DNA of 39,914 nucleotides, taken from positions 1 through 39,914 of the IMG/VR virus record IMGVR_UViG_3300017948_000109; one strand, 5' to 3'. This DNA is from a virus. The translations under genes were made by a program, and so were the position numbers. Below are positions 548-14,571 of the stretch, one piece after another (the stretch's first letter is position 1; the number at the start of each line of letters is the position of its first letter). The notes under the pieces were generated by a model that saw only the letters and a list, made by a program, of their open reading frames with translations, was not told the DNA's origin and did not search any database.

Positions 548-1006
548 ATGAAGACTCAAGTAACCGGTAGTCGGAAATATCTGCCAACACTTTCCGATCT
601 CATTGATCGACTTACTATCGTCCAGCAAAAACAAATCTTCATTCCAGATCGCCGTAAGGAATACGGTGAAGAACGGGATTTGTTGCTTCACGACATCGGC
701 CTTCTCATGGCAGAAAAGCCGATGACTGCGAAAGCCGTTTGGGCCATTACGGTTATCCAGCTTACAAATAGATGTATCTGGGAAAACGAAACGAAGATTC
801 GTGATGGATCTTCTGATGAGCCCCCTGATGTGCAGTTAAAGCGTCTCAAGCTTACGCACTCTATCAATGGCGTCAGAAATACTGCAAAGAACGTTCTAGC
901 GGAAGAATGCGGCGGTCGGCATGACTATAAGCTGGATGCATTAAGCGCTGATCTGCCTCCAGAGTTTGGTGCTTGGAACATCTTTAAAATAGAGAACGGG
1001 GACTAG
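548..1006 (+). CDS. Hypothetical protein leading the sugar-gene cassette
   Basis: A 152-residue, mostly helical soluble protein. I start it at ATG 548 because GGTGGGGAG lies just upstream; a longer frame from 488 has no comparable ribosome site. Residues 12-25 read LPTLSDLIDRLTIV, followed by a charged helix and a second helical half. From memory, small proteins with a similar opening occur beside glycan-biosynthesis genes in phages and bacteria, but no function is known to me. It lies four bases ahead of the E1-alpha-like gene and is probably translated with it. It is the first gene of the enzyme cargo. Confidence 0.7.
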   Translation: MKTQVTGSRKYLPTLSDLIDRLTIVQQKQIFIPDRRKEYGEERDLLLHDIGLLMAEKPMTAKAVWAITVIQLTNRCIWENETKIRDGSSDEPPDVQLKRLKLTHSINGVRNTAKNVLAEECGGRHDYKLDALSADLPPEFGAWNIFKIENGD

Positions 1007-1010
1007 GATC

Positions 1011-1622
1011 ATGAGTGCGGGGAACGGACTAACTGCTTCGAACCTGATAGAGTTTGAGGCAGAAGTAGCAGCTATCTTCAATGATGGCAAAATACGTGCG
1101 CCCGTACATCTTTCTGGAGGAAACGAAGATGTTTTGATCGACATCTTCAAGGACATCCAGCCAAACGATTTTGTGTTTAGCACATGGCGCAGCCACTATC
1201 ATGCGCTTCTTCACGGTATTCCTCGCGATAAATTGATGTCGGCCATTGTTGGCGGCAAATCTATTTCCCTGAACTTTCCTGAACATAATTTTTATTCTTC
1301 TGCAATTGTTGGTGGTATGCTGCCAATTGCAACCGGAGTCGCTTGGGCAGCAAAACGAAAAGAAACGTCTACCCGAGTTTATGTCTTTGTAGGTGACATG
1401 GCTTCTCGTGGGGGATTGTACCAGGAGTGCTATAATTATTCATTCGGGCACGATTTACCAATTGTCTTTGTTTCAGAAGAAAATAACCTGTCTGTATGCT
1501 CTCCGACTAAAGATGTCTGGGGAAAGAAAAACCCAAGAAAATCAGGCAAGTGCTTAGAGATGACTTATAGTTATTCTATACCGTGGCCCCACTCTGGCGC
1601 CGGCAAGCGCGTGGAGTTCTAG
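1011..1622 (+). CDS. Thiamine-diphosphate enzyme, E1-alpha/transketolase N-domain-like
   Basis: A 203-residue protein with the thiamine-diphosphate (ThDP) binding fold of dehydrogenase E1-alpha subunits. The metal/ThDP motif starts at GDM (residues 128-130) and closes at ENN (157-159), the expected spacing of about 30. HYHALLHGIP at 62-71 resembles the E1-alpha segment that contacts the cofactor. E1-alpha subunits are usually over 300 residues; this one lacks the long C-terminal part and ends in a PHSGAGKRVEF segment. I take it as a compact variant rather than a broken gene because the next gene supplies the partner domain. It probably forms an alpha2beta2-type enzyme with the product at 1625, acting on an alpha-keto or keto-sugar donor. 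Substrate unknown. Confidence 0.85.
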   Translation: MSAGNGLTASNLIEFEAEVAAIFNDGKIRAPVHLSGGNEDVLIDIFKDIQPNDFVFSTWRSHYHALLHGIPRDKLMSAIVGGKSISLNFPEHNFYSSAIVGGMLPIATGVAWAAKRKETSTRVYVFVGDMASRGGLYQECYNYSFGHDLPIVFVSEENNLSVCSPTKDVWGKKNPRKSGKCLEMTYSYSIPWPHSGAGKRVEF

Positions 1623-1624
1623 CC

Positions 1625-2146
1625 ATGGAAGGATATTTCGAGGCGATCCGCGATGCCATGACGGATCTCGCCAAAGATCCAAGAACTATCTTTGTGGGGC
1701 AAGCCGTAGCCTATCCCGGCACAGCTATGTCTCGCACGCTTGAATTTGTGCCGGAATCCCAGAAGCTGGAATTTCCAGTTGCGGAAAATTTTCAAATGGG
1801 TTTCTGCATTGGCCTTGCTTTACAGGGATATCTCCCTGTGTGCATTTATCCAAGATTTAATTTCCTGCTTTGTGCCATAGACCAGCTTGTCCTTCACTTG
1901 GATAAGTTTCCTGCTATGGGCGCAGGTGTTCCCAAAGTTATAATACGTACTGCAGTCGCGCATGATCAGCCAATGAATCCTGGCCCACAGCATTTAGGTG
2001 ATTTTACTGAAGCGGTGTCGGAGATGCTAACAACCGTGCATGTGCGCCGGGTCCGTTCACCAAATGGTGCAATCCGCATCTATAAGGAAGCCGTGCAGGA
2101 AACAGAGCGATCAACACTTGCTGTTGAGATGTTGAGCCACTACTAA
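1625..2146 (+). CDS. Thiamine-diphosphate enzyme, E1-beta/transketolase Pyr-domain-like
   Basis: A 173-residue protein matching the pyrimidine-binding domain of E1-beta subunits and transketolase. Glu54 in FPVAEN (50-55) occupies the place of the catalytic Glu that activates the ThDP ring, followed by a glycine-rich helix (GLALQGYLPV). The segment NFLLCAIDQLVLHLDKF (79-95) matches the E1-beta helix that normally reads FDQI. The usual C-terminal transketolase domain of E1-beta is absent. The start at 1625 follows GGAG within the last codons of the alpha-like gene, two bases after its stop. The two genes together rebuild one minimal ThDP active site at the subunit interface. Confidence 0.85.
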   Translation: MEGYFEAIRDAMTDLAKDPRTIFVGQAVAYPGTAMSRTLEFVPESQKLEFPVAENFQMGFCIGLALQGYLPVCIYPRFNFLLCAIDQLVLHLDKFPAMGAGVPKVIIRTAVAHDQPMNPGPQHLGDFTEAVSEMLTTVHVRRVRSPNGAIRIYKEAVQETERSTLAVEMLSHY

Positions 2147-2160
2147 GCGGGGCACGCCCA

Positions 2161-3321
2161 ATGACCAAACCACGGTACGACTACCCTACAGCTTTTTCGC
2201 TATGGGAGGACGAAGAGCACGCCGCCATAGATCGTGTAATTCGATCTAGCCAGCACACCATGGCTGACGAGGTTCGCGCCTTTGAGGCTGAGTTCGCCGC
2301 ATGGCACGGTGTTTCTCACGGGATCATGGTGAACTCGGGAAGCAGCGCAAATCTAATACTTGTGACTGCCCTCGTAGAAATGGGTCTGGCCGAGCGCGGC
2401 AGCTGTGACGTAGCCGTTCCTGCTATCGCGTGGTCTACAACCTATGCCCCTTTAGTACAAAACGCTCTCGAACTCCACTTGGTGGATGTAGACGCCACCT
2501 GGAATGCCGATTGGAAGAGCCACGAGTCGCTTCACAATATTGATTTGAAATATGTGGGCCTTCTTGTGAGTGTGCCGATCTTGGGCAATCCCACAGAACT
2601 TCCCACAATAAAAAGCGGGCAGGTTATCATCGAAGACAACTGCGAGAGCTTGGGAGCTGTCAGTCCTTCGGGTCGAAAAATGGGTACAGGAGTCCGTGCC
2701 AGTACGTTCTCCTTTTTCCACTCTCATCAAATTTCCGCGATCGAAGGCGGGATGATTCTGACCGACGATGGGGAACTCGCCAAAATGTGCCGCGTTTTGC
2801 GGGCGCATGGCTGGACCCGCGATGTGGAACCGCCCCTGTCTTTCGATACGGAGTACAACTTTGTGCGGCACGGCTACAATGTTCGTCCTCTTGAAATTTG
2901 CGCGGCTGTGGCCCGTGAGCAGCTAAAGAAGCTTCCACGATTTATCGCAGCGAGACGCCAAAACCAAGAATACTTCCTGGATAAAATTACCTCGTTGAAT
3001 GCCACATGGCCCTGTATCTGGCCTCAGAAAATACAGGGCCAGACGAGTCCTTTTGGTCTTTCCTTTTGTGTCGAAAGCGCGGAAGTAAGACAGAAGCTTG
3101 TCCTTGCTCTTCGAGCACATTCCATTGATTGTCGATTACCTACAGGCGGGTCTTTTACATTGCACCCTTATGGGTGGCTGTATCGGGAGCAAGAAGCACC
3201 TTGCGCTAATACTGTGCATCGTACAGGATTATTCTTGGGGAACGCACCCTATTTCATCAAGGACAAGATCGATCTCGCAGTAGAAATCATCGAAGACGTT
3301 GTAAGCAAGGCGGGAGCATAA
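2161..3321 (+). CDS. DegT-fold PLP enzyme, ColD-like sugar 3-dehydratase
   Basis: A 386-residue member of the DegT/DnrJ/EryC1 (type I PLP) family that acts on nucleotide-linked 4-keto sugars. Visible landmarks are SGSSANL (59-65, phosphate site), IIEDNCESLGA (156-166, Asp for the PLP nitrogen) and FSFFHSHQISAIEGG (183-197). At the position of the PLP-binding Lys there is His189. In this family that replacement marks dehydratases such as ColD and CDP-sugar E1 instead of aminotransferases. Length fits ColD (about 390) better than E1 (about 440), and no clustered Cys iron-sulfur site is seen. It lies between the ThDP pair and an SDR, consistent with 3-deoxy-sugar synthesis. Confidence 0.88.
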   Translation: MTKPRYDYPTAFSLWEDEEHAAIDRVIRSSQHTMADEVRAFEAEFAAWHGVSHGIMVNSGSSANLILVTALVEMGLAERGSCDVAVPAIAWSTTYAPLVQNALELHLVDVDATWNADWKSHESLHNIDLKYVGLLVSVPILGNPTELPTIKSGQVIIEDNCESLGAVSPSGRKMGTGVRASTFSFFHSHQISAIEGGMILTDDGELAKMCRVLRAHGWTRDVEPPLSFDTEYNFVRHGYNVRPLEICAAVAREQLKKLPRFIAARRQNQEYFLDKITSLNATWPCIWPQKIQGQTSPFGLSFCVESAEVRQKLVLALRAHSIDCRLPTGGSFTLHPYGWLYREQEAPCANTVHRTGLFLGNAPYFIKDKIDLAVEIIEDVVSKAGA

Positions 3322-3325
3322 AATC

Positions 3326-4276
3326 ATGAAAGTGTTATGTACTGGGGGCGCTGGTTACATTGGATCCACGTTGCTTCCAAGGCTGCTTTATATTGGTTCT
3401 GGAATCAATTTTACGGTAGAGAAACTTACTGTCGTGGATAATTTTATGTACCGGCAGGCCGAGGCACTTGCGCCTTTGTGCCGGGATCCGAGATTTGAAG
3501 TTGTGTGCGGGGATGCACGGGATGCGTCCACAATGCGGGAACTCGTGAAGAATCACGATGTTGTGATTCCGCTCGCAGCGATCGTGGGGGCACCCGCCTG
3601 TAAGCTGGACCGCGTAGGAGCTGTTACAACAAACCAAGAAGCTATTGCGTTGCTCACAACCATCATGAGCAAAGACCAATGGATGCTTATCCCCATCACA
3701 AACAGCGGCTACGGCAACGCTCAAGGTGAATGGTGCACCGAAGATACGCCAATGAATCCTATCTCTGCCTATGGCGAAACAAAAGTCATGGCAGAAAAGA
3801 TTGCTTTGAGCCGAGAAAATACTATCAGTTTTCGCTTGGCCACCGTATTTGGCATGTCCCCCAGAATGCGTCTTGACCTACTCGTCAATGACTTTGTTTA
3901 TCGTGCTGTGAAGGACAAGTTTATTGTCCTGTTTGAGTCTCACTTTAAGCGCAACTATATTCACGTTCGTGACGTGGCGCGTGCTTTCGAATTAGGATTA
4001 ACCAGATTTGATAAGATGCGCGGGCATGCCTATAACGTGGGCCTTTCTGACGCTAATCTTTCGAAGCTGGAACTTTGCGAAAAAATAAAGAAACATGTGG
4101 ACTTCACGATCCTTGAGGCCCCTGTCGGGGAGGACCCTGACAAACGTGACTACCTTGTGTCGAATGCAAAAATCGAGGCCTGTGGCTTCACAGCCGTTCA
4201 TTCGCTGGACATGGGCATACAGGAACTGGTAAAAGGCATTGGAATGATGCGCGGCGGGGCCTACACGAATGTGTGA
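3326..4276 (+). CDS. NAD-dependent sugar epimerase/dehydratase (SDR)
   Basis: A 316-residue extended short-chain dehydrogenase. The NAD-binding glycine motif is GGAGYIG at residues 7-13, an acidic residue after strand 2 (VVDN, 36-39) suits NAD, and the catalytic Tyr149 and Lys153 lie in SAYGETK (147-153). The NSGYG block at 126-130 supplies the Ser of the triad. Family members epimerise, dehydrate or reduce nucleotide sugars. Starting four bases after the dehydratase stop, it may act on the 4-keto product, as ColC does for ColD in GDP-colitose synthesis. It could equally be a 4-epimerase; the sequence does not decide. Confidence 0.88.
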   Translation: MKVLCTGGAGYIGSTLLPRLLYIGSGINFTVEKLTVVDNFMYRQAEALAPLCRDPRFEVVCGDARDASTMRELVKNHDVVIPLAAIVGAPACKLDRVGAVTTNQEAIALLTTIMSKDQWMLIPITNSGYGNAQGEWCTEDTPMNPISAYGETKVMAEKIALSRENTISFRLATVFGMSPRMRLDLLVNDFVYRAVKDKFIVLFESHFKRNYIHVRDVARAFELGLTRFDKMRGHAYNVGLSDANLSKLELCEKIKKHVDFTILEAPVGEDPDKRDYLVSNAKIEACGFTAVHSLDMGIQELVKGIGMMRGGAYTNV

Positions 4277-4288
4277 TGTGAGGAACAG

Positions 4289-5131
4289 ATGGCCCAGATT
4301 TACCTTTTTGACGTTAACATCGGACAGCGTGCTTTCTCGTTTCCCACACCATCGGGTGGCGGAACGATTCAGACAGTGGGCGTGTGGACGCTGACTGCGA
4401 CTACCGATCCCACAACGACCAACGACACGACTACAGGCATTTCTGTCGGGTCTATTTGGTTTAATTCTACTGCAGGCATGCTGCGTTGGTGGGAGTGTCG
4501 CGATAATACGGCTAGTGCAGCAAAGTGGGTATTCTCTGGTGCCGATTACACCAATGGTGGCTGTAATCCTGCCACAGAAGTTACGCAGGCTGGTTCGAGT
4601 ACGGCACTGATCGCTGCGGAAGGCAATATCAATCGTCAGGTTTTGCCCTCTGGCGTTACTTGTGGAGGCACTGGCGCAGACTATGTTCTGGCAGTCTATG
4701 CGTTGCCTGGAAATTTCTTCGATGGATTGGTGGGCACCAATCGCGGTATCACAATCACGGCACAGGGATCTTACTCCGCGAGCGGTAACGCCAAGCGCTG
4801 TAAGATCATTTATAACCCACAAGCGGCTGTTGTCGGCAGCAGTGTGAATCTTGGTTCTGGTTCAGTCATAGCGGATACCGGTTCCGGTTCGCCAAACGGA
4901 ACGGGTTGGTGCCTTGAGGCAAATGTCTTTAAGTACGGCGCTGTGGGTAGTAATACACAGCTAGGTATGCATGTGCTCGCGCAGTCGGGAGGTTCTGTTG
5001 TATCTTTGTTGGCGCCTGTGTTGCTTACGGCGACAGAAAGCGGTGCTATAACTATCGCCATAACAGGAAATCCGGCTACAGCAGCTGGCGACATTGCTTT
5101 GAATTTCCTGGCTATCAATGCCATGAACTAA
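4289..5131 (+). CDS. Virion surface/fibre-like structural protein
   Basis: A 280-residue protein dominated by Gly, Thr, Ser and Ala with no enzyme motif. An N-terminal SIWFNSTAGMLRWW segment (52-65) is typical of phage fibre or head-spike proteins. The C-terminal half (from about GTNRGITITAQG, and again ANVFKYGAVGSNTQ and the last residues INAMN) follows a beta-rich pattern I know from structural proteins of many unrelated tailed phages. It interrupts the run of sugar enzymes, making it a candidate target of their product. Assignment to the virion is well supported by composition; the exact site on the particle is not known. Confidence 0.75.
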   Translation: MAQIYLFDVNIGQRAFSFPTPSGGGTIQTVGVWTLTATTDPTTTNDTTTGISVGSIWFNSTAGMLRWWECRDNTASAAKWVFSGADYTNGGCNPATEVTQAGSSTALIAAEGNINRQVLPSGVTCGGTGADYVLAVYALPGNFFDGLVGTNRGITITAQGSYSASGNAKRCKIIYNPQAAVVGSSVNLGSGSVIADTGSGSPNGTGWCLEANVFKYGAVGSNTQLGMHVLAQSGGSVVSLLAPVLLTATESGAITIAITGNPATAAGDIALNFLAINAMN

Positions 5132-5153
5132 ACCAAAAGGCGGGGAATAAACT

Positions 5154-6626
5154 ATGGTTGATCTGGTCGTCATTCATCCGGGTGCTGCACACGGCATCTA
5201 TGGTGAACTTGGAAACCGACTTACGGCGCTTGAACCGCCGTTATGGTCAAGGCTGATTTCAGGCTACATCCGTAAGCGTGGGTGGGACGTGAAGATCATT
5301 GATGCGGAAGCGGAGGGATGGGGACCAAAGCAGGTGGCGCAAAAGGTTCAGGAACTGGATCCGAGCCTTGTCTGCATTGCTGTTTATGGGCACCAACCTT
5401 CAGCATCTACTCAGCAGATGGTGTCTGCGAGAGAGATCGCGTCGGCTTTAGGTAAGATCGGTTCAGCAATCATAATGGTTGGAGGCCATGTCGCCGCCCT
5501 TCCAGCGCGTACGCTTTGGGAAGAACCTGTTAGTTATGCTTGTAACGGCGAAGGTCCTGTTACGATAGAGGGGTTGTTACAATACTATAAGGGGCGTTTT
5601 GGTGCGAGTCTGCTTAAAATTCCAGGATTAGTTTATTGGGATGGGGCCGATAAGCCTATAAGCAATCCTCCCGCGCCCCTTATCGAAGACCTCTCTGAGT
5701 TTGGCGACGGCTCCTGGGACGATCTTCCTATGGAGAAGTACCGTGCTCATAATTGGCAATGTTTCGGGGACTTGGCACAAAGGCAGCCTTATGCGTCTAT
5801 TTACACTTCACTAGGTTGCCCGCATGCCTGCGTTTTTTGCTGTATCCACGCACCTTTCAATTCGCGCCGTTACCGCATGCGCGATCCCAAAGAAGTCATC
5901 ACTGAGATAAAGTACCTTTACGAAAAATACCAAGTACGCACATTCAAGATCATAGACGAGCTTTTCGTCCTCAATGAGAAGCACTACACCACGATCGCAC
6001 GGGGCATCGTTGATGCCGGGCTCGGGGATAAGATCAACATCTGGGCCTATGCCCGCGTCGATACCGTGCGCGAGGGGCACCTAGCCCTGCTTCGCGCGGC
6101 AGGAATCCAGTGGCTAGCGCTCGGGATCGAATCGGGCTCCAAGTACGTTCGCGACGGCGCGCAGAAGCGGCTCAAGAATGATGACATCGCGGCTGTCGTG
6201 AAGAGTGTGCAAGACGCAGGAATCAACGTCATCGGGAATTACATCTTCGGGCTGCCAGATGATAATCGTATCACAATGCAGGAGACTCTAGACCTCGCGT
6301 TAGAGTTGAACACAGAGTTTATGAACGCATACGTAGCCATGGCGTACCCCGGTAGTCCGTTATACAAAGAGGCTCTAGAGAAAGGCTGGATCCTCCCCGA
6401 GACTTGGCGCGGCTATTCCCAGCACAACGATGATTGTCGTCCCCTCGATACGCAACATATCTCCGGCGCAGAGGTACTGGCCTTCCGGGATCAAGCGTTC
6501 ATCACGTACTTCTCCAGCGATCGTTACCAGACCATGATTCGGGAGAAGTTTGGGGAAGAAACGCTTGTTCATGTTCAAGAGATGCTGCGCTATCGGCTTC
6601 CCCGGAAGCTTGTGGCAGCGGCCTAA
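5154..6626 (+). CDS. Cobalamin-binding-domain radical SAM enzyme
   Basis: A 490-residue two-domain protein. Residues 1-140 form a Rossmann-like B12-binding domain in the BchE/P-methylase style (VVIHPG at the start, IDAEAEGW at 50-57, MVGGHVAALP at 108-117). The radical SAM core has the cluster motif C222-x3-C226-x2-C229 in GCPHACVFC, and a later GIESGS block. The B12 domain lacks the classical DxHxxG, as in many members of this class. Such enzymes methylate unactivated carbon or phosphorus or rearrange carbon skeletons. Here it probably modifies a sugar or lipid-like intermediate. The start follows GGCGGGG. The substrate cannot be read from sequence. Confidence 0.88.
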   Translation: MVDLVVIHPGAAHGIYGELGNRLTALEPPLWSRLISGYIRKRGWDVKIIDAEAEGWGPKQVAQKVQELDPSLVCIAVYGHQPSASTQQMVSAREIASALGKIGSAIIMVGGHVAALPARTLWEEPVSYACNGEGPVTIEGLLQYYKGRFGASLLKIPGLVYWDGADKPISNPPAPLIEDLSEFGDGSWDDLPMEKYRAHNWQCFGDLAQRQPYASIYTSLGCPHACVFCCIHAPFNSRRYRMRDPKEVITEIKYLYEKYQVRTFKIIDELFVLNEKHYTTIARGIVDAGLGDKINIWAYARVDTVREGHLALLRAAGIQWLALGIESGSKYVRDGAQKRLKNDDIAAVVKSVQDAGINVIGNYIFGLPDDNRITMQETLDLALELNTEFMNAYVAMAYPGSPLYKEALEKGWILPETWRGYSQHNDDCRPLDTQHISGAEVLAFRDQAFITYFSSDRYQTMIREKFGEETLVHVQEMLRYRLPRKLVAAA

Positions 6627-6629
6627 GCA

Positions 6630-6995
6630 ATGACGCGCGTGTTCCAAGACAAATACGGCCCCAATCATGGAACATGCCTCCAAGCAGCTGTTGCCAGTGT
6701 CCTAAGCCTTCCGCTCCACGCCGTTCCCGACATCGCTCACGTGGATCCCGAAATCTGGCAGGCTTTCCTGCTGAGGATGAATCTGGTGGAACTGACCTTG
6801 CCCGCTTCGGCCAGACCCGATTGCTACTACATAGCATCGGGTGCCTCAGAGAAGACTGGCCGAGAACATGCATGTGTTTACCGTGCCGGAAAACTCGTGC
6901 ACGATCCCCATCCGGGGAGAAAGGGTCTATCTAGAATAGACTCCATCTATGTCCTTGTGCCCATGGAATTGGATTATTCGGAGGAAGCCGCTTGA
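6630..6995 (+). CDS. Papain-like (C39-type) small protein
   Basis: A 121-residue protein with a minimal papain-fold signature: Cys16 in HGTCLQAAVASVLSLP (13-28) at the start of the core helix, His80 in REHACVYRAGKLV, and Asp92 in HDPHP. These would form a Cys-His-Asp triad. Proteins of this size and layout occur in phages and bacteria as C39-like peptidases or acyl/amide transferases, without known substrates. It starts three bases after the radical SAM stop and its end overlaps the glycosyltransferase start, so the three are translationally coupled. A hydrolase, a transpeptidase-like transferase or a non-catalytic binder are all possible. Confidence 0.7.
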   Translation: MTRVFQDKYGPNHGTCLQAAVASVLSLPLHAVPDIAHVDPEIWQAFLLRMNLVELTLPASARPDCYYIASGASEKTGREHACVYRAGKLVHDPHPGRKGLSRIDSIYVLVPMELDYSEEAA

Positions 6996-7714
6996 AACTA
7001 ACCATTACATTACCATCAATCCATGGACATGCTCTCCAGCGTACTTTGGAGAATATCCGGGATACAACGGTCGGTGACCATGAAGTCATCGTGGTTTCCC
7101 CTAATGAACCACCGTTTATTGGAAACATCACAACGTTCGTAAAAGATGTAGTCCTGGAAGGTGCCAATGCGGGGCATGCGCAGGCCCTGCACTATGCTCG
7201 GGGGGATTTTATTTTCCCTTGGGTAGATGACCATCTCTTAGTGAAGGGCTGGGATGGCGTCTTACTCGAAGAGTTCCTTGAACGGGAGAAGGAACATCAA
7301 TTTTTTGTGATGGGTGCGCGTAACGCCCCGCACGTGGGTACGGTGTTTGGGATTTATTACCCGTATTTTCCCTTGATGCGTCGTGAGTGGGCCGTACAGA
7401 CGGGCTGGTTCGATGCCGCGTATCGGTGTGGGTTCGCGGACGCTGATCTTGCGCTGCGTGTGTGGCAAACAGGAGGGCATTGTGAGTGGTCCAATAAATG
7501 GGATGACCAGCGAATCATCAAAGGGCATTTGGATGATGGGCGAAAAGGTTCAGCGCCAAACACAACGGATCTGGATACGAACTTGTTTCTGACTCGGTGG
7601 TATCCCATCTTCGGTGCAGGTTGGCAGACTGCTGATTTAAGAGACTATAATCGGGATGTTATCCCGGAGCCAAGCCGTAAGTCTTACTCCCCGGACCGAA
7701 GAAGACTTTATTAA
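6992..7714 (+). CDS. GT-A fold (family 2-like) glycosyltransferase
   Basis: A 240-residue protein with the GT-A nucleotide-sugar domain: an N-terminal strand MKLTITLPSIHG, strand EVIVVSPN (31-38), helix NAGHAQALHYARGD (59-72) and an acidic metal-binding motif WVDDH (77-81) at the DxD position. A further acceptor-side segment GFADADLALRVWQTGG fits the catalytic ED/DD region. The start is TTG 6992, overlapping the previous stop (TTGA) with GGAGGAAG upstream; no better ATG exists nearby. It likely transfers a sugar made by the neighbouring enzymes to a protein or glycan acceptor. Donor and acceptor are unknown. Confidence 0.85.
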   Translation: MKLTITLPSIHGHALQRTLENIRDTTVGDHEVIVVSPNEPPFIGNITTFVKDVVLEGANAGHAQALHYARGDFIFPWVDDHLLVKGWDGVLLEEFLEREKEHQFFVMGARNAPHVGTVFGIYYPYFPLMRREWAVQTGWFDAAYRCGFADADLALRVWQTGGHCEWSNKWDDQRIIKGHLDDGRKGSAPNTTDLDTNLFLTRWYPIFGAGWQTADLRDYNRDVIPEPSRKSYSPDRRRLY

Positions 7715-7726
7715 GGGACGTTTCAC

Positions 7727-8680
7727 ATGAGCGGCAATCCTCAAACAAATGCGTCCTTGTACAACGAAATCACTGTAGAACTTGCCTCGTCGAATAATAT
7801 CACGGCAGCAGAGCTTCGTGGAGTTCTGAATGATATTGTTGCGTCCGGTAACATCGGAACTATTTCCAGTGGGCTGGTATTGGGTAATAATACCGGCAAC
7901 GTCGGCCCGCCTATTACGTTGACCCCGAGCAATGTGCTTGATCTTATCAGTACCGCTGAAGGCAGTATTCTTGCCCGTAGCGGCACTAGTTGGGTAGCGC
8001 TGGCCCCAGGTACGGCTGGGTATATATTAACAACGGAGGGCGGCGCTGCCCTTCCACAATGGACAGCACCTCCCAGTATCGCGACGATCGGCACACCAGG
8101 ACTTGTTTCTCCTGATGGCATTACGACTACTGTTAACGGCAGCGGAGTTATCTCTACCCTTAGCGGGTGGGCTCTGTTGGCGACAATTACGGTTAGCGGA
8201 ACCGCTACGGCAGCGATCTCCGACACAACACATTTGACTAACACTTATTCACAATATAAACTTGTATTGCTTAACATTATTCCACAAACGACACAAGAAA
8301 ATTTACAGCTTTTATTGCATAGCGGAGGTGCTTTTAAAAGTACAGGGTATTTGACGAATATTTATTATACCGTAGGTGGCGCCTTGACGCAAAGCGCTTC
8401 AACTACAACATACATACCATTGAACATTAATTCATCTAATTCTAACAATGGCGCAGCAGGAGAACCCGGCATATGCGGAGAAATAAACATTTTCAATCCC
8501 TCTTCAGGCAATATTTGCGTGGTAGATGGCAGGACTAACTGGTTAATTAGCTCAGGCACCTCTATTGCCATGAGCATGTTCGAGGGATGTTGGAACAGTG
8601 CTGCAGTCATTGATGGTTTTCAGCTAGCTTATGCTTCTGGAAACATTACCGGTACGGTCAAGATTTATGGTATAACCTGA
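7727..8680 (+). CDS. Tail-fibre-like virion protein
   Basis: A 317-residue fibre-type protein. The segment GSILARSGTSWVALAPGTAGYILTT (starting near residue 84) is a widespread phage fibre repeat linking stalk and head regions. The C-terminal domain runs from GWALLATITVSG to GTVKIYGIT and is a beta-rich tip of the kind found in receptor-binding or host-range proteins. There is no catalytic motif or signal peptide. It lies between the glycosyltransferase and methyltransferase genes and is far from the main fibre genes at 27269-29481, which suggests a second adsorption or decoration structure on the head or neck. Binding partner unknown. Confidence 0.78.
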   Translation: MSGNPQTNASLYNEITVELASSNNITAAELRGVLNDIVASGNIGTISSGLVLGNNTGNVGPPITLTPSNVLDLISTAEGSILARSGTSWVALAPGTAGYILTTEGGAALPQWTAPPSIATIGTPGLVSPDGITTTVNGSGVISTLSGWALLATITVSGTATAAISDTTHLTNTYSQYKLVLLNIIPQTTQENLQLLLHSGGAFKSTGYLTNIYYTVGGALTQSASTTTYIPLNINSSNSNNGAAGEPGICGEINIFNPSSGNICVVDGRTNWLISSGTSIAMSMFEGCWNSAAVIDGFQLAYASGNITGTVKIYGIT

Positions 8681-8694
8681 TAGGAGCGGGGACC

Positions 8695-9273
8695 TTGGGA
8701 TACGCACTCGATGATCACTTTTTGCTGTCGCGGATGCAGCAGATTTTTCTGGAAAATAATATAACTACCGTTGTGGAAACTGGTACGGCTGATGGAGATT
8801 CTGCGGTTAGATTTTGCCAGTGTGTTCAAAACTATATAGGCATAGAAATAGATCCTGTAAAAATAAAGCAAACCCAGACACTTTTGGATGCAAATAATTT
8901 AACCAACTATAGATTATTATTCGGGGATTCTTCAGAAATCTTGAAAGATGTTGTACCTACTGTGGACGCAGCGCATACATTTTTCTTTTTAGATGCTCAT
9001 AACTTTTCCGGAAATACGGCATGGCCGTTCTTTTCTGAAGTTCGTGCGCTCGTACCTGGTAAAGGTATTATTGGTCTTCATGATTTTAGAGTACCTGGAA
9101 AACCATTTGGTGTAGATGATTACACCCTAAACGACGGTGTTGTGAAAGAGTTTAACTATGATCTGATCAAGAATGTTCTGACTGAGTGGAGTCCTCTGCA
9201 CCGCATTGAGTACATGCAGGAATCAGACCCAGCATCCTCTTATCGGGGCGCTGCATTTGTTTATCCTAACTGA
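8695..9273 (+). CDS. Class I SAM-dependent methyltransferase
   Basis: A 192-residue Rossmann methyltransferase. Motif I is VVETGTADGDS (26-36), the acidic residue that binds the SAM ribose is Glu51 in GIEIDP, and a post-motif FFFLDAHN marks motif IV. The layout resembles FkbM- or TylF-like sugar/small-molecule methyltransferases more than DNA methylases; no target-recognition domain is present. I use TTG 8695 as the start because GGAGCGGGG precedes it and no in-frame ATG lies near the N-terminus. It follows a fibre gene and precedes a second methyltransferase. The region looks AT-richer than the tail genes. Confidence 0.82.
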   Translation: MGYALDDHFLLSRMQQIFLENNITTVVETGTADGDSAVRFCQCVQNYIGIEIDPVKIKQTQTLLDANNLTNYRLLFGDSSEILKDVVPTVDAAHTFFFLDAHNFSGNTAWPFFSEVRALVPGKGIIGLHDFRVPGKPFGVDDYTLNDGVVKEFNYDLIKNVLTEWSPLHRIEYMQESDPASSYRGAAFVYPN

Positions 9274-9286
9274 GGTGCAATTATCT

Positions 9287-10324
9287 ATGACTACTTACAC
9301 AAAAGCACGTCTTGTAGACAATACCCCCACCACAGAGTCCTGCTTCGCTAAAGCAGAAGCACTGACTCAACAAATTGTTGCCACAGTACGGAATCGCGAA
9401 ACCTACGTACAAAAAAACGATCTTGATCCTGACTTTTGTCTTCCTGCGTTTCAATGGGATCCCACTGACCTGCAGAACGGTTTTAATGCGGCGTTTGCGC
9501 TGATCGCAAATGACCTGCGAGCACAACTTCCCCACCTTCGTTTCCGTTGCCGAATGTTCACCGGCTACACGACTCTTCTCATGGGAACGATACCCAAGGG
9601 AGCGGACATTACTGCGCCAGTTCCTGCAGACTTTGATGAAAGTGTTCTCTCCAACGATCCTGGAATTATGGTATGTGGGCTACCGTTGGTAGAGCGCTGG
9701 GAAAGGCTCATACAGGATGTGCCGGCAAAATATAGATATTGTGCGCCACCTGTCTTGGGCGAAGTCGGTTGGAAATGGGGAGAGTATACAATTAATTCTG
9801 ATGTAGTTGGCTATCAGGAGCGGCTGACTCTTCTGCATCGCGCAGGCATTTTTGATAGGTTAGAAAAAATAAAACAACCGCGTATATTGGAAATAGGTGG
9901 CGGCTACGGAGCACTTGCCCACGTAATAACTGAGGCTCTCCCTGCCGCCGCGTATTATATTTGCGATTTACCGGAATGTTTGCTGTTCTCTGGTTTGTAT
10001 CTGACTTGTGCAGGCGACGGCTCCGATAGAAGTGTGGGATTGTTCCCCAATGATTTTGCGATACAACTTGTGCCAAATTACCAAGCGCAATTGATACCGG
10101 GAAATTTCGACTTGGTTATTAACACGTTGTCTCTTACGGAAATGTCGCCGCCACAACAGCATGTTTACGGTAATCTTATAAAACAGTGGATTGGTAATGA
10201 TGGACTGTTCTTTGAACAAAATCAAGGAATCAAGCCGTGGCGCTATATATTTAATAATAACCAAAAGCTTTCTCTTGGAGATATTGAAATACGACAAGGT
10301 GTAGTGGAACTCTGGTGGAATTGA
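9287..10324 (+). CDS. Putative sugar O-methyltransferase (NanM/TIGR04371-like)
   Basis: A 345-residue protein whose C-terminal half is a SAM-dependent methyltransferase: ILEIGGGYGALA at 200-211 is motif I, and YYICDLPECLLFSGLYL follows as the ribose-binding strand and helix. The N-terminal half (about 190 residues) is helical and carries the FxxW-type pattern seen in putative sugar O-methyltransferases of polysaccharide clusters. The start is ATG 9287 with GAGGTG upstream overlapping the previous stop; longer in-frame starts would run into the preceding gene. It probably methylates a hydroxyl on the sugar assembled by the cassette. The family assignment is from memory of motif and length. Confidence 0.8.
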   Translation: MTTYTKARLVDNTPTTESCFAKAEALTQQIVATVRNRETYVQKNDLDPDFCLPAFQWDPTDLQNGFNAAFALIANDLRAQLPHLRFRCRMFTGYTTLLMGTIPKGADITAPVPADFDESVLSNDPGIMVCGLPLVERWERLIQDVPAKYRYCAPPVLGEVGWKWGEYTINSDVVGYQERLTLLHRAGIFDRLEKIKQPRILEIGGGYGALAHVITEALPAAAYYICDLPECLLFSGLYLTCAGDGSDRSVGLFPNDFAIQLVPNYQAQLIPGNFDLVINTLSLTEMSPPQQHVYGNLIKQWIGNDGLFFEQNQGIKPWRYIFNNNQKLSLGDIEIRQGVVELWWN

Positions 10325-10329
10325 CATAG

Positions 10330-11076
10330 ATGATACAAGCAAAGCATCTTAGGCGCGATGGCATCGTTACAGACGATCCTATGCCTATACACGAGGTGGA
10401 TGCGATCGTGGCCCACTTTACTGGGGCTTGTGTTCATCGCTATCATGTTGCTAAGACAGATGTGGAGAACTGTTCCTACCAAGAAGCCCTAGATAAACAA
10501 TGGGCATATTTTGCGGCAAGTTTCAACGATGTCGTCATGGCACCACATTGGCTTGAACGGGCCATTAGTCATTATAACGATGCCAAGACCTATTTTTCTG
10601 GAAGGTCACCTTATCTTTATTCACTGAATGCTTTTTGGACATTTCCTTCTTCACAAATATATTCAGATACACAGGGCTGGCATCGGGACGATAGCGACGG
10701 TCCTGATCAATTTACGGTATTCATGTTCGGCACGGATGTGAATTTTTCAGGACGGCATCAGTACGCGCGAGGGTCGAATAATATGCCCTATCGTTCGCCA
10801 GATCCCTTCTATGGGGCAGAACCGCCCGAAGATATCGTAACATCTGTTTATGGACCCCGTGGAACAATTATTGTTGAAGATACACATGGCTTGCATCGGG
10901 CAGCTTCTACCCTAGATACGCCAAGATTGTTGCTGTGGGCACGATGGAATACTAGTTCGGTACCGTTTGAGTCTTATACGAAAGACGGCTTGTCTCCTTT
11001 TCCTAAAGAGATGCTGGGAGATCGCTACCCGAAAGATCCGGTTCTACAGGATGCTATCCAGCTGCTAGTGCGATGA
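10330..11076 (+). CDS. Phytanoyl-CoA dioxygenase-like Fe(II)/2-oxoglutarate enzyme
   Basis: A 248-residue double-stranded beta-helix oxygenase. The iron triad appears as His118 and Asp120 in WHRDD, with the distal His in EDTHGLHRA (His189, possibly His186). Arg199 in TPRLLLWARW sits where 2-oxoglutarate is bound. PhyH-family enzymes hydroxylate or halogenate lipid, amino-acid or sugar-containing small molecules, using Fe(II), O2 and 2-oxoglutarate. It starts five bases after the sugar methyltransferase, so hydroxylation of the same intermediate is plausible. A DNA-base or protein substrate cannot be excluded. Confidence 0.82.
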   Translation: MIQAKHLRRDGIVTDDPMPIHEVDAIVAHFTGACVHRYHVAKTDVENCSYQEALDKQWAYFAASFNDVVMAPHWLERAISHYNDAKTYFSGRSPYLYSLNAFWTFPSSQIYSDTQGWHRDDSDGPDQFTVFMFGTDVNFSGRHQYARGSNNMPYRSPDPFYGAEPPEDIVTSVYGPRGTIIVEDTHGLHRAASTLDTPRLLLWARWNTSSVPFESYTKDGLSPFPKEMLGDRYPKDPVLQDAIQLLVR

Positions 11077-11092
11077 TCTAGGGGTAGGACAT

Positions 11093-11296
11093 ATGTTGGG
11101 GAACTACATATATACGAATCTTGCTGGCACTTTAGAATGCAAAAACTGCCGTAAAGAAGGAAGATCCAAACCAGCGGCGGTAACCTCGCCGCATCCTATG
11201 TGTGCCAAATGTGCACTAGAGTGGCTTTTAAAAACAACCCAGAAGGGGGCAAAACATGAAGACCCTGTTCTTCACAACCGGAACACGCGATTGTGA
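11093..11296 (+). CDS. Small zinc-ribbon-like protein
   Basis: A 67-residue basic protein with two Cys pairs, CKNC at residues 16-19 and CAKC at 37-40, spaced as in a single zinc ribbon. The start follows GGGGTAGGA. Its last 41 bases overlap the glycosyltransferase gene at 11256 in another frame. The Cys spacing and ribosome site support a real gene; the C-terminal tail within the overlap has no recognisable pattern. It may be a nucleic-acid or protein-binding accessory factor. Function unknown. Confidence 0.55.
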   Translation: MLGNYIYTNLAGTLECKNCRKEGRSKPAAVTSPHPMCAKCALEWLLKTTQKGAKHEDPVLHNRNTRL

Positions 11297-12167
11297 GAAG
11301 CTTTGGCAGTCCTATATCAATCTGGGGCACGAGACGCATGTGATGCGCTATGATGTTCCTGGCATCAATATGGTGGAGGTCGCCAAAGCTTATGCGCCGG
11401 AAGTGATTATCTACATCGGTGCCATCGGTGATTTTCACTTTGGCCTTCCTGTGCCCTCGCCAGATGTGCTTGAGGCAGTTGGCCGGGTCGCGCCAATGGT
11501 ACACCTGTGCTCTGACGCAGCGGATCCTCCTTGGTGGGATCTCCTGAACGAGTATTTTTCGAGGCGGGTCTTTGCGGTCCAGGTCACAATCGATGGGTGT
11601 TCTGATTCGCCCATGGGCGGCCGTGCCACAGACGCATGCGTGGCGCTTACGCCAATTGATCCGGGGATGTTCCATCCGCGCCCCTGGCACAATCGCATCT
11701 ACGATTGTGGCTTCGTAGGAGGTGGGGGTGTTCGCATTCCCATGATTCGTGATCTGCAGTCCAAGGTGCCCCTGACGTGGTATTGTAATGGACAAGAGGT
11801 CCCGTATTCGGAGATGTGCGGGTTTTATTCTGACTGTCGCGTCGTCTGGAATGCCGCCAACACGGGATCGAACGCGAAGCGCCACGTGAAGGGGCGCGTC
11901 GTGGAGGCAGGTCTTGCCGGCGCAGTGCTGATCGAGCCCGATGATTCCCCTCTAAAGCAGTGGTTCGAAAGTGGTGTAGACTACTTGTCCTGGGGTGACT
12001 TGGATGAGGCGGCGGAATGGATCAAATACATCCTGAACAATCCCAGTATGGGGGAAGCTATGGCGGCGCGGTTTCATCAAAAGATGGTGAAATACCACGC
12101 TGCTGGAGTTTTTTGGGATAAAGTTTTGGGGATGGTGAAGGCGCGAGAACTATGCCAGTCAGCGTAA
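11256..12167 (+). CDS. GT-B glycosyltransferase-like protein (CgeB type)
   Basis: A 303-residue protein with two Rossmann-like halves. The first begins KTLFFTTGTRDCEKLWQSY and contains VIIYIGAIGDFHFG; the second starts near IYDCGFVGGGGVRIPM and contains NAKRHVKGRVVEAGLAGAVLI, the glycine- and Glu-containing segment that binds the donor nucleotide sugar in GT-B enzymes. This matches CgeB-like glycosyltransferases (C-terminal glycosyltransferase group 1 domain). GAAGGGGG precedes the ATG. Its 3' end overlaps the neck gene by 16 bases. It is the first of two such proteins in the cassette, the second being at 13156. Confidence 0.78.
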   Translation: MKTLFFTTGTRDCEKLWQSYINLGHETHVMRYDVPGINMVEVAKAYAPEVIIYIGAIGDFHFGLPVPSPDVLEAVGRVAPMVHLCSDAADPPWWDLLNEYFSRRVFAVQVTIDGCSDSPMGGRATDACVALTPIDPGMFHPRPWHNRIYDCGFVGGGGVRIPMIRDLQSKVPLTWYCNGQEVPYSEMCGFYSDCRVVWNAANTGSNAKRHVKGRVVEAGLAGAVLIEPDDSPLKQWFESGVDYLSWGDLDEAAEWIKYILNNPSMGEAMAARFHQKMVKYHAAGVFWDKVLGMVKARELCQSA

Positions 12168-12619
12168 CAGGCGGAAACAAAATCGGTCCCTACCTGACTA
12201 ACCTTGTTGCTCGGGCCAGTCGGGGCGGGACTTTGCGTGTGGGGTTTCTTCCGGGAGATACCTATCCAAATGGCGTCAGTGTGGCCAGCGTAGCAATTTC
12301 GAATAATTTTGGGGACCTTGCTAGGAACATTCCGGCGAGGCCCTTCTTTTCGAATCTGGCGCGGAGTCAGCGGGCTGCGTGGGCGAAGCGTCTCAAAAAG
12401 TTGATTAGCGAAAATAATATGAACGTGTACGATGCGCTGGAGGATTTGGGGGTGCAGATCGTTGGCGAGGTTCAGCAATCTATTATGACGTTCATAGGGA
12501 CTCCCTTGAGTCCCGTTACTATACGACGCAAAGGATTTGATAAGCAACTTATAGAAACTGCTAGATTATTAGAATCAGTATCTTTTAGCATCGGTGCGAG
12601 CAAGGAAACAGGAGAATAA
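12152..12619 (+). CDS. Head-tail connection / virion morphogenesis protein
   Basis: A 155-residue protein of the phage neck or tail-completion type. Key segments are NNFGDLARNIPARPFF (50-65), a central helix with regularly spaced basic residues, and SPVTIRRKGFDKQLIETARLLESV towards the end; this last pattern is characteristic of phage virion-morphogenesis proteins. It overlaps the upstream glycosyltransferase by 16 bases, so a typical virion gene is coupled directly to a sugar enzyme. It would act at the head-tail joint. The HNH gene starts three bases after its stop but does not split it. Confidence 0.78.
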   Translation: MPVSVTGGNKIGPYLTNLVARASRGGTLRVGFLPGDTYPNGVSVASVAISNNFGDLARNIPARPFFSNLARSQRAAWAKRLKKLISENNMNVYDALEDLGVQIVGEVQQSIMTFIGTPLSPVTIRRKGFDKQLIETARLLESVSFSIGASKETGE

Positions 12620-12621
12620 AA

Positions 12622-13137
12622 ATGAAGGCTAACAGGAACAAAGAGAGTTTGTTGACACAAGCGCAAGTGTGGAAGCTATTTAACTATGATCCACACACGG
12701 GTTTGCTTACTAGACTTACACGTGCAAGTACACGCGCTAGAATTGGTGACGTTGTTAGTAATGTAGATAATAGGGGATACCTTAGAGTTAAAATTAATGG
12801 TTTTTGCTACAGTGCACATCGTTTAATCTACTTCTACGTTAAAGGCATGTGGCCTGTAGACCAAATCGACCACGCTAATGGCGTGAAAACTGATAATCGA
12901 TGGTGCAATCTACGCGAGGCTACGCAATCCCAAAATAATGCAAATAGAGGTAGGGCTCGCAACAATTCTTCTGGATTTAAAGGAGTTGACTTACTTTATT
13001 CAAATTTTTGGCGAGCTATGATTAAAGCTAACAAGAAAAACAAGGTACTGGGCTACTTCGATTGTCCTGCTGCAGCACATTTCGCATATCTGATAGCAGC
13101 CGACAAAGCATTCGGCAAGTTCGCCAGAGCCGCATAA
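12622..13137 (+). CDS. HNH homing endonuclease with AP2 domain
   Basis: A 171-residue free-standing homing endonuclease. The HNH core is IDHANGVKTDNRWCNLREAT (about 87-106), with the usual DNR and N-R-A-T residues, followed by QNNANR. Residues 112-165 (SSGFKGVDLL to AYLIAADKAFG) form the AP2-like DNA-binding domain often paired with HNH in phages. The start has AGGAG upstream, from the tail of the previous gene. Such genes spread by cutting a cognate site in related phages and often sit between essential genes. Composition looks AT-richer than the surrounding genes, consistent with recent arrival. Confidence 0.9.
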   Translation: MKANRNKESLLTQAQVWKLFNYDPHTGLLTRLTRASTRARIGDVVSNVDNRGYLRVKINGFCYSAHRLIYFYVKGMWPVDQIDHANGVKTDNRWCNLREATQSQNNANRGRARNNSSGFKGVDLLYSNFWRAMIKANKKNKVLGYFDCPAAAHFAYLIAADKAFGKFARAA

Positions 13138-13155
13138 ACACTGGAGGTTGTAAAA

Positions 13156-14163
13156 ATGCAGTTCCTATACTGGACCGCGAATCATAATACTGCAGGACAA
13201 CGCTCGCTTGAAGACCCGATGGGAATCATGGGGAAACAGCTTCAGTCTCTCGGCCACAGCGTCGTGTGGGATCCCCGAAATGAAAAACTACTTCCTCAAC
13301 AGGAGGGTTTAAATATTATAGTCGAGGGCTTCATGCCCGCTGCTGTGCCCGTTATTGAAGACTATTATCGTCAAGGTGCCCGCTTCATTTGTCTTGCCAC
13401 GGAAGAGCCATCCGCACGCGGATTCAACCATGGACGCGATCCCTCTATGGTTATTCGCCAAGCAACATTCCCTGCTGCCGCTAAATTCTTTGAAGGGATC
13501 TTTCATCTAGTTCCCGGAGAACACGTCGGAGATTGGTACAAGCAATACGCCCCTACGTCCTATGTAGAGCTTGGCTACGCGCCTTCTCTGGTTCGGGGCG
13601 GAGATACTATCCCCCCAATTTACGACTTCGGCTTCTTCGGATCACTAACTCACCGACGCATGACAATCCTGAAGCGCCTTGCCAAGAAAACCTCCAACCC
13701 CAAAGCTATAAGAATAGAAGGCACGTTCGCAGCCCAGGACGAGCGGGACAAAATCATGCGCGAAGCCAAGGTTATTCTCCAAGTTAGAAAATTCAGTGAG
13801 ATGGGATTGGTGTCATCTACAAGATGTAACACAGCCCTCCACATCGGACGCCCTGTGATAGGCGAAGCCCACGAGCTATCCGATCCCTGGGATAAAATCG
13901 TAACCTTCTCGAAGGCCTGCAAAACCTGCACCGAAGGCGGGAACAACGGGCGAGGAAGAAACTTTCTTTGCGATGTTTGCGTCGATAACTTCATCGATCT
14001 CGCTCTGCTCACAAAATCAATGTGGAAGCCTGTCTATGCGAGACAGTTCGAGACGTTTCGGACCATGCTAACACCCGATTACTGTGTCGGTCGCGCGTTC
14101 CGTGAAATCGGCATGGACATCTCTGGAAAAACTTTCCGCAAGATAGACCCCATCGCAGCATAG
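13156..14163 (+). CDS. GT-B glycosyltransferase-like protein with Cys cluster
   Basis: A 335-residue protein related in layout to the gene at 11256. It opens MQFLYWTANHNTAGQRSLED, has a middle strand YDFGFFGSLTHRRM and a donor-binding-type segment GLVSSTRCNTALHIGRPVIGEAHELS. Two Cys pairs separated by a Gly/Asn/Arg-rich loop (CKTC and CDVC, about residues 255-275) could bind zinc and are unusual for GT-B enzymes. It probably transfers a sugar; whether it is catalytic is not certain. It lies behind the homing endonuclease and is the last recognised enzyme of the cassette. Confidence 0.7.
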   Translation: MQFLYWTANHNTAGQRSLEDPMGIMGKQLQSLGHSVVWDPRNEKLLPQQEGLNIIVEGFMPAAVPVIEDYYRQGARFICLATEEPSARGFNHGRDPSMVIRQATFPAAAKFFEGIFHLVPGEHVGDWYKQYAPTSYVELGYAPSLVRGGDTIPPIYDFGFFGSLTHRRMTILKRLAKKTSNPKAIRIEGTFAAQDERDKIMREAKVILQVRKFSEMGLVSSTRCNTALHIGRPVIGEAHELSDPWDKIVTFSKACKTCTEGGNNGRGRNFLCDVCVDNFIDLALLTKSMWKPVYARQFETFRTMLTPDYCVGRAFREIGMDISGKTFRKIDPIAA

Positions 14164-14430: not shown

Positions 14431-14571
14431 GTGTCCGATAAGACACTCTCAATTGTGGAGCTAGAAAGAATCTACCTCGTGGTAGACGAAGAAGAGGTCA
14501 TTCTGGCCGAAACAAAGACCCGAGAAGAGGCTGCTGCTTACATTGAGGAAAACTGGAGAAAGCTGCCTTGA
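14431..14571 (+). CDS. Short acidic hypothetical protein
   Basis: A 46-residue frame from GTG 14431 to TGA 14571. It encodes a strand-turn-strand-helix pattern with a run of acidic residues (VVDEEEV) and a final helix REEAAAYIEENWRKL. It starts two bases after the preceding stop, and its stop overlaps the TTG start of the head-tail gene (TTGA), so it fits the coupled gene order. The helical end resembles small AAAYIEENW-type phage proteins of unknown role. No function assigned. Confidence 0.6.
   Translation: MSDKTLSIVELERIYLVVDEEEVILAETKTREEAAAYIEENWRKLP

What the first reader, a model, noticed from the sequence alone, without database searches (positions are those of the whole stretch)
548..14163. 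A late-gene cargo of sugar and small-molecule enzymes threaded between virion proteins
Seen: about fifteen same-strand genes, including a ThDP pair, a DegT-fold dehydratase, an SDR, a B12 radical SAM enzyme, a papain-like protein, three glycosyltransferase-type proteins, two methyltransferases and a 2-oxoglutarate dioxygenase, interrupted by structural genes at 4289, 7727 and 12152. Established: each family is known separately in glycan or natural-product pathways. Inference: the product is made when particles assemble and decorates the virion or alters a host surface glycan. This is the strongest candidate for an undescribed system here.
Basis: partly seen in the sequence, partly recalled or inferred. 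Interest (0 to 1): 0.78.

Follow-up and report, generated by a model that had tools for sequence, protein, structure and literature searches.

The report
Phage branched-sugar cassette among virion genes
This virus of bacteria carries, in the same gene row as its tail and head proteins, a conserved set of enzymes that looks able to build an unusual branched sugar from a heptose and then attach it to something, most likely the virus particle itself; the chemistry is well supported by sequence, the target is not yet known.

Summary
From 548 to 14163 the window has an unbroken run of same-strand genes, median gap 12 bp, mixing sugar enzymes with virion genes of a contractile-tailed phage. It is not chance: the core set (small helical protein, minimal ThDP PP/PYR pair, DegT, SDR, B12 radical SAM) recurs in ten other phage contigs, in eight of them beside the same neck, head or tail genes, with varying accessory enzymes.

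What it likely makes: the SDR is closest to Campylobacter Cj1427 (GDP-heptose C4-dehydrogenase). The DegT is closest to ColD and has the dehydratase histidine in place of lysine. The ThDP pair resembles pairs that add a two-carbon branch to keto-deoxysugars. One phage also carries heptose-supply enzymes beside the set. Best reading: a GDP-linked 3-deoxy-heptose with a C4 two-carbon branch. Nitrospira, Pelagibacter, Burkholderiales and Verrucomicrobia hold the same enzymes, in surface-polysaccharide clusters where examined.

Where it goes is inferred. The phages lack two polysaccharide-export families and the genes sit in the late operon, which favours virion decoration; host-glycan alteration remains open. 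Nothing was tested at the bench. This is a new variant of known chemistry.

The parts
548..1006 (+). DUFp: 152-aa all-helical protein of unknown function, core gene of the phage cassette
   Evidence: Conserved in 11 phage loci, 54-66% identity; in 30 of 79 viral and 0 of 80 bacterial ThDP loci; AlphaFold pLDDT 79, weak matches (E 0.013-0.15, above 0.001) to domains of giant-virus proteins annotated as glycosyltransferase or acetyltransferase
1011..1622 (+). E1-alpha-like ThDP subunit (PP domain only, 203 aa)
   Evidence: PF00676; D129 and N158 invariant, motif GDM; PDB pyruvate dehydrogenase E1-alpha 1.5e-10
1625..2146 (+). E1-beta-like ThDP subunit (PYR domain only, 173 aa; ORF may start at 1583)
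   Evidence: PF02779; Glu54 invariant in 13 homologues
2161..3321 (+). ColD-like PLP sugar 3-dehydratase (DegT fold)
   Evidence: ColD 8.5e-69; His189 at the PLP-lysine position invariant in 11
3326..4276 (+). Cj1427-like GDP-sugar C4-dehydrogenase (SDR)
   Evidence: PDB 6vo6 1.5e-95 over full length, YxxxK present
4289..5131 (+). fibre-like protein, candidate acceptor
   Evidence: C-terminal part recurs beside or within the cassette in L069, L071, L176; low-confidence beta-rich model
5154..6626 (+). B12-binding radical SAM enzyme, step unknown
   Evidence: PF02310, PF04055; AprD4 1.5e-21; HpnJ/BchE/AprD4 family relatives; CPHACVFC cluster motif
6630..6995 (+). small papain-like protein
   Evidence: phrog_5845 1.7e-18; homologue next to radical SAM in L069
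6992..7714 (+). GT2-like protein (weak)
   Evidence: PF00535 E 0.038, below cut-off; homologues in L067, L061
7727..8680 (+). fibre-like virion protein
   Evidence: phrog_14820 1.8e-9 over residues 138-316; N-terminal match next to tail genes in L014
8695..9273 (+). methyltransferase
   Evidence: PF13578 3.8e-6; homologue in L059
9287..10324 (+). NanM-type sugar O-methyltransferase
   Evidence: TIGR04371 above cut-off; homologues in L069, L061
10330..11076 (+). 2OG/Fe(II) oxygenase-like
   Evidence: HxD...H and R invariant in 6 homologues
11256..12167 (+). glycosyltransferase (PF13524 family)
   Evidence: 2.6e-14; one or two copies in most relatives
12152..12619 (+). neck / tail-completion protein
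   Evidence: phrog_222 2.6e-35
13156..14163 (+). phage protein of unknown function, GT-B-like length but unassigned; usually near the neck gene
   Evidence: 54-58% identical in most relatives; no Pfam
14568..14942 (+). head protein flanking the cassette
   Evidence: phrog_1912 5.2e-36

Best explanation
The cassette makes an activated branched-chain deoxy sugar late in infection and hands it to phage glycosyltransferases. [quoted passage not shown] The ColD-like PLP enzyme removes the C3 hydroxyl. The minimal ThDP pair transfers a two-carbon unit, probably from pyruvate, onto the C4 ketone. The B12 radical SAM enzyme makes a further change of unknown type. Accessory methyltransferases, a 2OG oxygenase and one or more glycosyltransferases finish and attach the sugar. 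Because the genes are embedded in the virion operon and the phages lack the two polysaccharide-export families tested, the most likely acceptor is a virion protein. Shown by sequence: families, active-site residues, synteny, co-occurrence. Inferred: substrate, order of steps, branch, acceptor.
For: SDR to Cj1427 at 1.5e-95 and its reaction (PMC10680097). DegT to ColD at 8.5e-69 with the dehydratase His. His in 70/76 bacterial and 71/74 viral DegT neighbours of the ThDP gene, against 22 of 23 readable Lys-type among strong DegT hits in the same bacterial genomes. E1-type ThDP pairs add C2 branches to keto-deoxysugars (PMC4802897, PMC12247030). GmhA-, heptose-kinase- and guanylyltransferase-like genes beside the cassette in phage G040; GHMP kinase next to the core in Nitrospira and Pelagibacter. 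Sugar O-methyltransferase and GT in the window. Co-operonic spacing with virion genes and recurrence beside neck, head and tail genes in eight phages. No ABC-2 exporter or Wzx flippase in 20 phage records.
Against: No enzyme here was assayed. The ThDP pair lacks the usual C-terminal domain and has GDM instead of GDG. The radical SAM step is unexplained. GDP-heptose supply genes are absent from this window and nearly all relatives tested. The phage DegT and radical SAM are only about 30% and 37% identical to the bacterial ones. No acceptor is identified; contigs are fragments, so absences are soft. Bacterial clusters point to a surface polysaccharide.
Confidence: 0.45

Rival explanations
1. The same branched sugar is made but is put on a host surface glycan (LPS or capsule), to block superinfection or change receptors while particles assemble.
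For: Bacteria hold the same core in surface-polysaccharide clusters with Wzm/Wzt and GTs. Cyanophages P-TIM68 and S-SM2 carry a fused ThDP relative in clusters with LPS-type sugar genes.
Against: Cassette sits in the virion operon rather than an early or lysogeny region. No exporter or flippase in the phages, though host machinery could serve.
Confidence: 0.3
2. The ThDP pair does not branch a sugar. It supplies another acyl-transfer or decarboxylation product, and the sugar made is a simple 3-deoxy-heptose or hexose.
For: Minimal subunits and the GDM motif differ from characterised pairs; no substrate was tested.
Against: Near-constant pairing with His-type dehydratases, the enzyme class that provides the acceptor in yersiniose-type chemistry (PMC12247030). 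No E2 or lipoyl partner among the window proteins scanned.
Confidence: 0.2
3. The glycan goes onto phage DNA rather than protein, as in phages with glycosylated bases.
For: Phage glycosyltransferases do modify DNA in other phages (cited in PMC12619734).
Against: Base-modifying thymidylate-synthase-type genes in only 2 of 13 cassette records and not in the window; genes sit with virion genes.
Confidence: 0.05

Closest known systems
Campylobacter jejuni GDP-heptose modification (Cj1427 C4-dehydrogenase, HS:5 C3-dehydratase)
   Same: SDR closest to Cj1427; a PLP 3-dehydratase follows; the two were combined in vitro to give GDP-3-deoxy-4-keto-heptose (PMC10680097).
   Different: C. jejuni then epimerises and reduces C4; here a ThDP pair and a B12 radical SAM enzyme take their place, and the genes are in a phage virion operon.
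Colitose pathway ColD (GDP-4-keto-6-deoxymannose 3-dehydratase)
   Same: Closest solved structure of the DegT, same catalytic His.
   Different: The 4-keto group would come from a C4-dehydrogenase, not a 4,6-dehydratase, so C6 keeps its hydroxyl.
Two-carbon branching E1-type pairs (AviB1/B2, Plm8/Plm9, KbDH; alpha-KADH2)
   Same: Two-subunit E1 alpha/beta-like ThDP enzyme coded with deoxysugar genes; branch from pyruvate in known cases.
   Different: Here minimal subunits without a C-terminal domain, GDM motif, in surface-glycan and phage clusters rather than antibiotic clusters.
Yersiniose pathway (YerE with CDP-4-keto-3,6-dideoxyglucose)
   Same: Same logic: 3-dehydratase makes a 3-deoxy-4-keto sugar, a ThDP enzyme adds a C2 unit at C4.
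   Different: YerE is a single-chain decarboxylase-family flavoprotein; the sugar is a CDP-hexose.
Cyanophage LPS-like sugar clusters (P-TIM68, S-SM2)
   Same: Phage-borne ThDP relative, 39-43% identical, with sugar kinase, nucleotidyltransferase and phosphoheptose isomerase genes.
   Different: Fused PP-PYR protein; no virion genes annotated in the stretches viewed.
Mycobacteriophage virion glycosylation
   Same: Phage enzymes decorate virion proteins (cited in PMC12619734).
   Different: No phage-made dedicated sugar is described in the passage read; virion glycosylation is untested here.

Membership tests
ColD-type PLP sugar 3-dehydratase | His replaces the PLP-binding Lys | tested here: met
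   His189 aligned with ColD His188, invariant in 11 phage homologues
ColD-type PLP sugar 3-dehydratase | 3-deoxygenation of a 4-keto nucleotide sugar | not testable with these tools
   needs assay
Cj1427-type GDP-heptose C4-dehydrogenase | Full-length similarity with catalytic YxxxK | tested here: met
   6vo6 at 1.5e-95, residues 2-315; YGETK
Cj1427-type GDP-heptose C4-dehydrogenase | Acts on GDP-D-glycero-manno-heptose | not testable with these tools
   Indirect support only: heptose-supply genes beside the cassette in G040
alpha-KADH2-type branching ThDP pair | E1-alpha-like and E1-beta-like subunits coded side by side | tested here: met
   PF00676 and PF02779; E1b beside E1a in 80/80 bacterial and 78/79 viral loci
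alpha-KADH2-type branching ThDP pair | Catalytic Glu (PYR) and ThDP/Mg-binding D...N (PP) | tested here: met
   Glu54, D129, N158 invariant in 13 homologues; third motif residue is M, not G
alpha-KADH2-type branching ThDP pair | Full-length E1 subunits with C-terminal domain, as in pyruvate dehydrogenase E1 | tested here: not met
   203 and 173 aa; matches stop before the C-terminal parts
alpha-KADH2-type branching ThDP pair | Transfers C2 from pyruvate to a keto sugar | not testable with these tools
   needs assay
Phage virion-glycosylation system | Phage glycosyltransferase present | tested here: met
   PF13524 protein at 11256-12167
Phage virion-glycosylation system | Glycan found on virion proteins | not testable with these tools
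   needs mass spectrometry
Host polysaccharide (LPS/capsule) biosynthesis cluster | Export machinery (ABC-2 transporter or Wzx flippase) with the sugar genes | tested here: not met
   0 of 20 phage records for PF01061 and PF01943, controls ring; records may be fragments
DNA hypermodification pathway | Base-modifying thymidylate-synthase-type enzyme | tested here: inconclusive
   PF00303 in 2 of 13 records, not in this window

The most novel reading that the evidence does not exclude
Phages of this lineage run their own pathway to a C4-branched 3-deoxy sugar made from GDP-heptose by a minimal split ThDP carboligase, and coat their fibres or neck with it. That would be a phage-made glycan coat built on a monosaccharide I found described nowhere, sharing core chemistry with surface glycans of Nitrospira, Pelagibacter and Verrucomicrobia.
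Probability: 0.28. Interest if true: 0.82.

Novelty: new variant of a known kind. Interest (0 to 1): 0.62.

Why it matters
If right, it predicts the structure of an undescribed branched sugar used by aquatic and soil bacteria and their phages, gives a short enzyme set that can be assayed directly on GDP-heptose, and offers a concrete test of whether phages decorate their own particles with phage-made sugars. It would extend two-subunit E1-type carboligases, which a 2025 review (PMC12247030) places mainly in antibiotic pathways, to cell-surface and phage glycans. The partner protein at 548-1006, seen in viral but not in the bacterial loci examined, is a handle on what sets phage sugar cassettes apart.

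Tried and rejected
DNA search of the first 20 kb against annotated phages: no match. DUFp has no hit in annotated phages and no clear PDB fold (top Z 6.6, usual for helical bundles). The 13156-14163 protein: no viral hit from a single-sequence search, no Pfam match, no relation to the PF13524 family, so its GT label was dropped. The 4289 protein: single-sequence viral search found nothing; its AlphaFold model is low confidence (pLDDT 46), so fold matches are not used beyond 'beta-rich, phage-structural-like'. Considered that an inserted ~65-aa domain shared by sheath, a tail protein, baseplate and fibre might be the glycan acceptor; it is as common in cargo-free relatives, so not linked. DNA hypermodification: little support. 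Literature searches for a described phage system with this gene set found none in the held library, which lacks most subscription papers. The avilamycin branching paper (PMC544256) was not held.
Full report
WHAT THE WINDOW IS. The window is a whole virus record of 39,914 bases. It is a contractile-tailed phage fragment: sheath (phrog_205), tape measure, baseplate and fibre genes on the + strand, helicase and DNA polymerase on the - strand. Sheath relatives are found in IMG/VR (47 loci) and, more distantly, in phages such as Pantoea PA-1 and a Helicobacter prophage.

OBSERVATION. From 548 to 14163 sugar-type enzymes and virion genes form one tight row: median gap 12 bp, several overlaps, no excess of promoter-like sites. 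Families are confirmed for the ThDP pair, DegT, SDR, B12 radical SAM, two methyltransferases and one GT. The second methyltransferase is a NanM-type sugar O-methyltransferase above its curated cut-off. The 2OG oxygenase is supported by invariant H-x-D, H and R. The GT2-like protein is weak, and the protein at 13156 cannot be called a GT. The protein at 12152 is a neck/tail-completion protein and 14568 a head protein; 4289 and 7727 look fibre-like but are not firmly assigned.

IT IS CONSERVED. Searches with the ThDP, radical SAM and sheath proteins and mapping of all window proteins show DUFp, E1-alpha, E1-beta, DegT, SDR, radical SAM in this order in ten other phage contigs: G002, G009, L064, L066, L067, L069, L078, L164, L173 and L176. 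Insertions between them occur, and L078 has the two ThDP genes swapped. In eight of these (all but L164 and L173) neck, head or tail homologues lie in or next to the set. Accessory genes differ from phage to phage: PF13524 GTs, 2OG oxygenase, methyltransferases, the papain-like protein. Most sheath relatives lack the cargo: among 29 records searched, two of which were chosen for their ThDP gene, only G002 and G009 carry the DegT. Active-site residues are invariant. On a tree of E1-alpha, E1-beta and SDR the window falls in a group of 10 phage sequences with no bacterial member, support only 0.59. This looks like a maintained phage cassette rather than a recent pick-up.

THE CHEMISTRY. (a) The SDR matches Campylobacter Cj1427 over its whole length at 1.5e-95; Cj1427 oxidises C4 of GDP-D-glycero-manno-heptose (PMC10680097). 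(b) The DegT matches ColD at 8.5e-69 and keeps the histidine that replaces the PLP lysine, the mark of a 3-dehydratase rather than an aminotransferase. The same paper combined Cj1427 with a C3-dehydratase in vitro and obtained GDP-3-deoxy-4-keto-heptose. (c) The ThDP pair is E1-type but minimal: 203 and 173 aa, no C-terminal domain, GDM for GDG. E1-type pairs are held to install C2 branches from pyruvate on keto-deoxysugars in paulomycin and related pathways (PMC4802897; PMC4753412; PMC12247030), and the unrelated YerE does so in yersiniose. (d) The pairing with a His-type dehydratase is strong. Around the ThDP gene, 70 of 76 bacterial and 71 of 74 viral DegT hits carry His. In 12 of the same bacterial genomes the best-scoring DegT proteins are almost all Lys-type, 22 of the 23 whose motif could be read (five of the 22 were read by eye where the script's pattern stopped one residue late, and the sample is biased toward strong Pfam scores). 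(e) In one phage (G040, locus L228) a phosphoheptose isomerase (5.4e-44), a heptose kinase (3.4e-25) and a guanylyltransferase (5.1e-8 to a heptose-pathway protein) lie beside the cassette. Bacterial clusters have a GHMP kinase next to the core and, in Nitrospira, an NTP-transferase. GDP-heptose is therefore the best-supported starting sugar. (f) The radical SAM step is unknown; relatives include AprD4, HpnJ and BchE types.

BACTERIAL COUNTERPARTS. Of the 80 best bacterial loci for the ThDP protein, all have the partner subunit, 72 a DegT, 66 a radical SAM homologue and 62 the SDR within 10 kb. Hosts include Pelagibacteraceae, Nitrospira, Burkholderiales, Verrucomicrobia and cyanobacteria. The Nitrospira cluster has Wzm/Wzt exporters and GTs, so the pathway probably serves a surface polysaccharide there. 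The phage cassette differs by DUFp (0 of 80 bacterial loci, 30 of 79 viral) and by the 13156-type protein (1 of 80 bacterial loci, at 28% identity).

WHERE THE SUGAR GOES. This is inference. For the virion: interleaving with neck, head, tail and fibre-like genes in several phages; a fibre-like protein whose C-terminal part recurs beside or inside the cassette in L069, L071 and L176; no ABC-2 exporter or Wzx flippase in any of 20 phage records. For a host glycan: the bacterial clusters themselves and the cyanophage LPS-like clusters. DNA modification is least likely. The records may be fragments, so absences are soft.

NOVELTY. Every step has a close precedent. The combination (heptose C4-oxidation, C3-deoxygenation, split minimal ThDP carboligase, B12 radical SAM), its spread in bacteria and its placement in a phage virion operon were not found described in the papers searched. 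That library omits most subscription papers, so prior description cannot be excluded. I rate it a new variant of a known kind: C-branched sugar biosynthesis carried as phage glycan cargo.

Noticed in passing
window 16901, 17923, 25988, 26177, 28064 (start of each copy, + strand): A ~65-aa beta-type domain (consensus near SGxxLTVxxVxxGTxxxGxTVxGxGVxxGTxVxxxxxGTxGxGTYxVxxxQ) is inserted in the sheath, a tail protein, the baseplate protein (twice) and a fibre; also common in sheath relatives with and without the cargo.
   Followed up: partly
window 12622-13137: HNH endonuclease (PF13392) sits between the neck gene and the 13156 protein, a likely homing-type insertion.
   Followed up: no
window 6630-6995: Papain-like small protein (phrog_5845) keeps its place right after the radical SAM gene in L069.
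   Followed up: no
L083:5039-9996: A Pelagibacteraceae cluster holds a YerE-like ThDP decarboxylase plus a second E1-type pair beside the minimal pair: several ThDP carboligase candidates in one sugar locus.
   Followed up: no
window 13156-14163, residues 253-275: The 13156 protein has a CxxC...CxxC insertion (KACKTC...FLCDVC) shared only with its L069 homologue among ten aligned, a possible zinc knuckle.
   Followed up: no
window 548-1006: The predicted fold of DUFp resembles, weakly (E 0.013-0.15), helical domains in giant-virus proteins annotated as glycosyltransferase or acetyltransferase.
   Followed up: partly
window 11093-11296: A 67-aa Cys-rich, zinc-finger-like ORF overlaps the start of the GT gene by 41 bp.
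   Followed up: no
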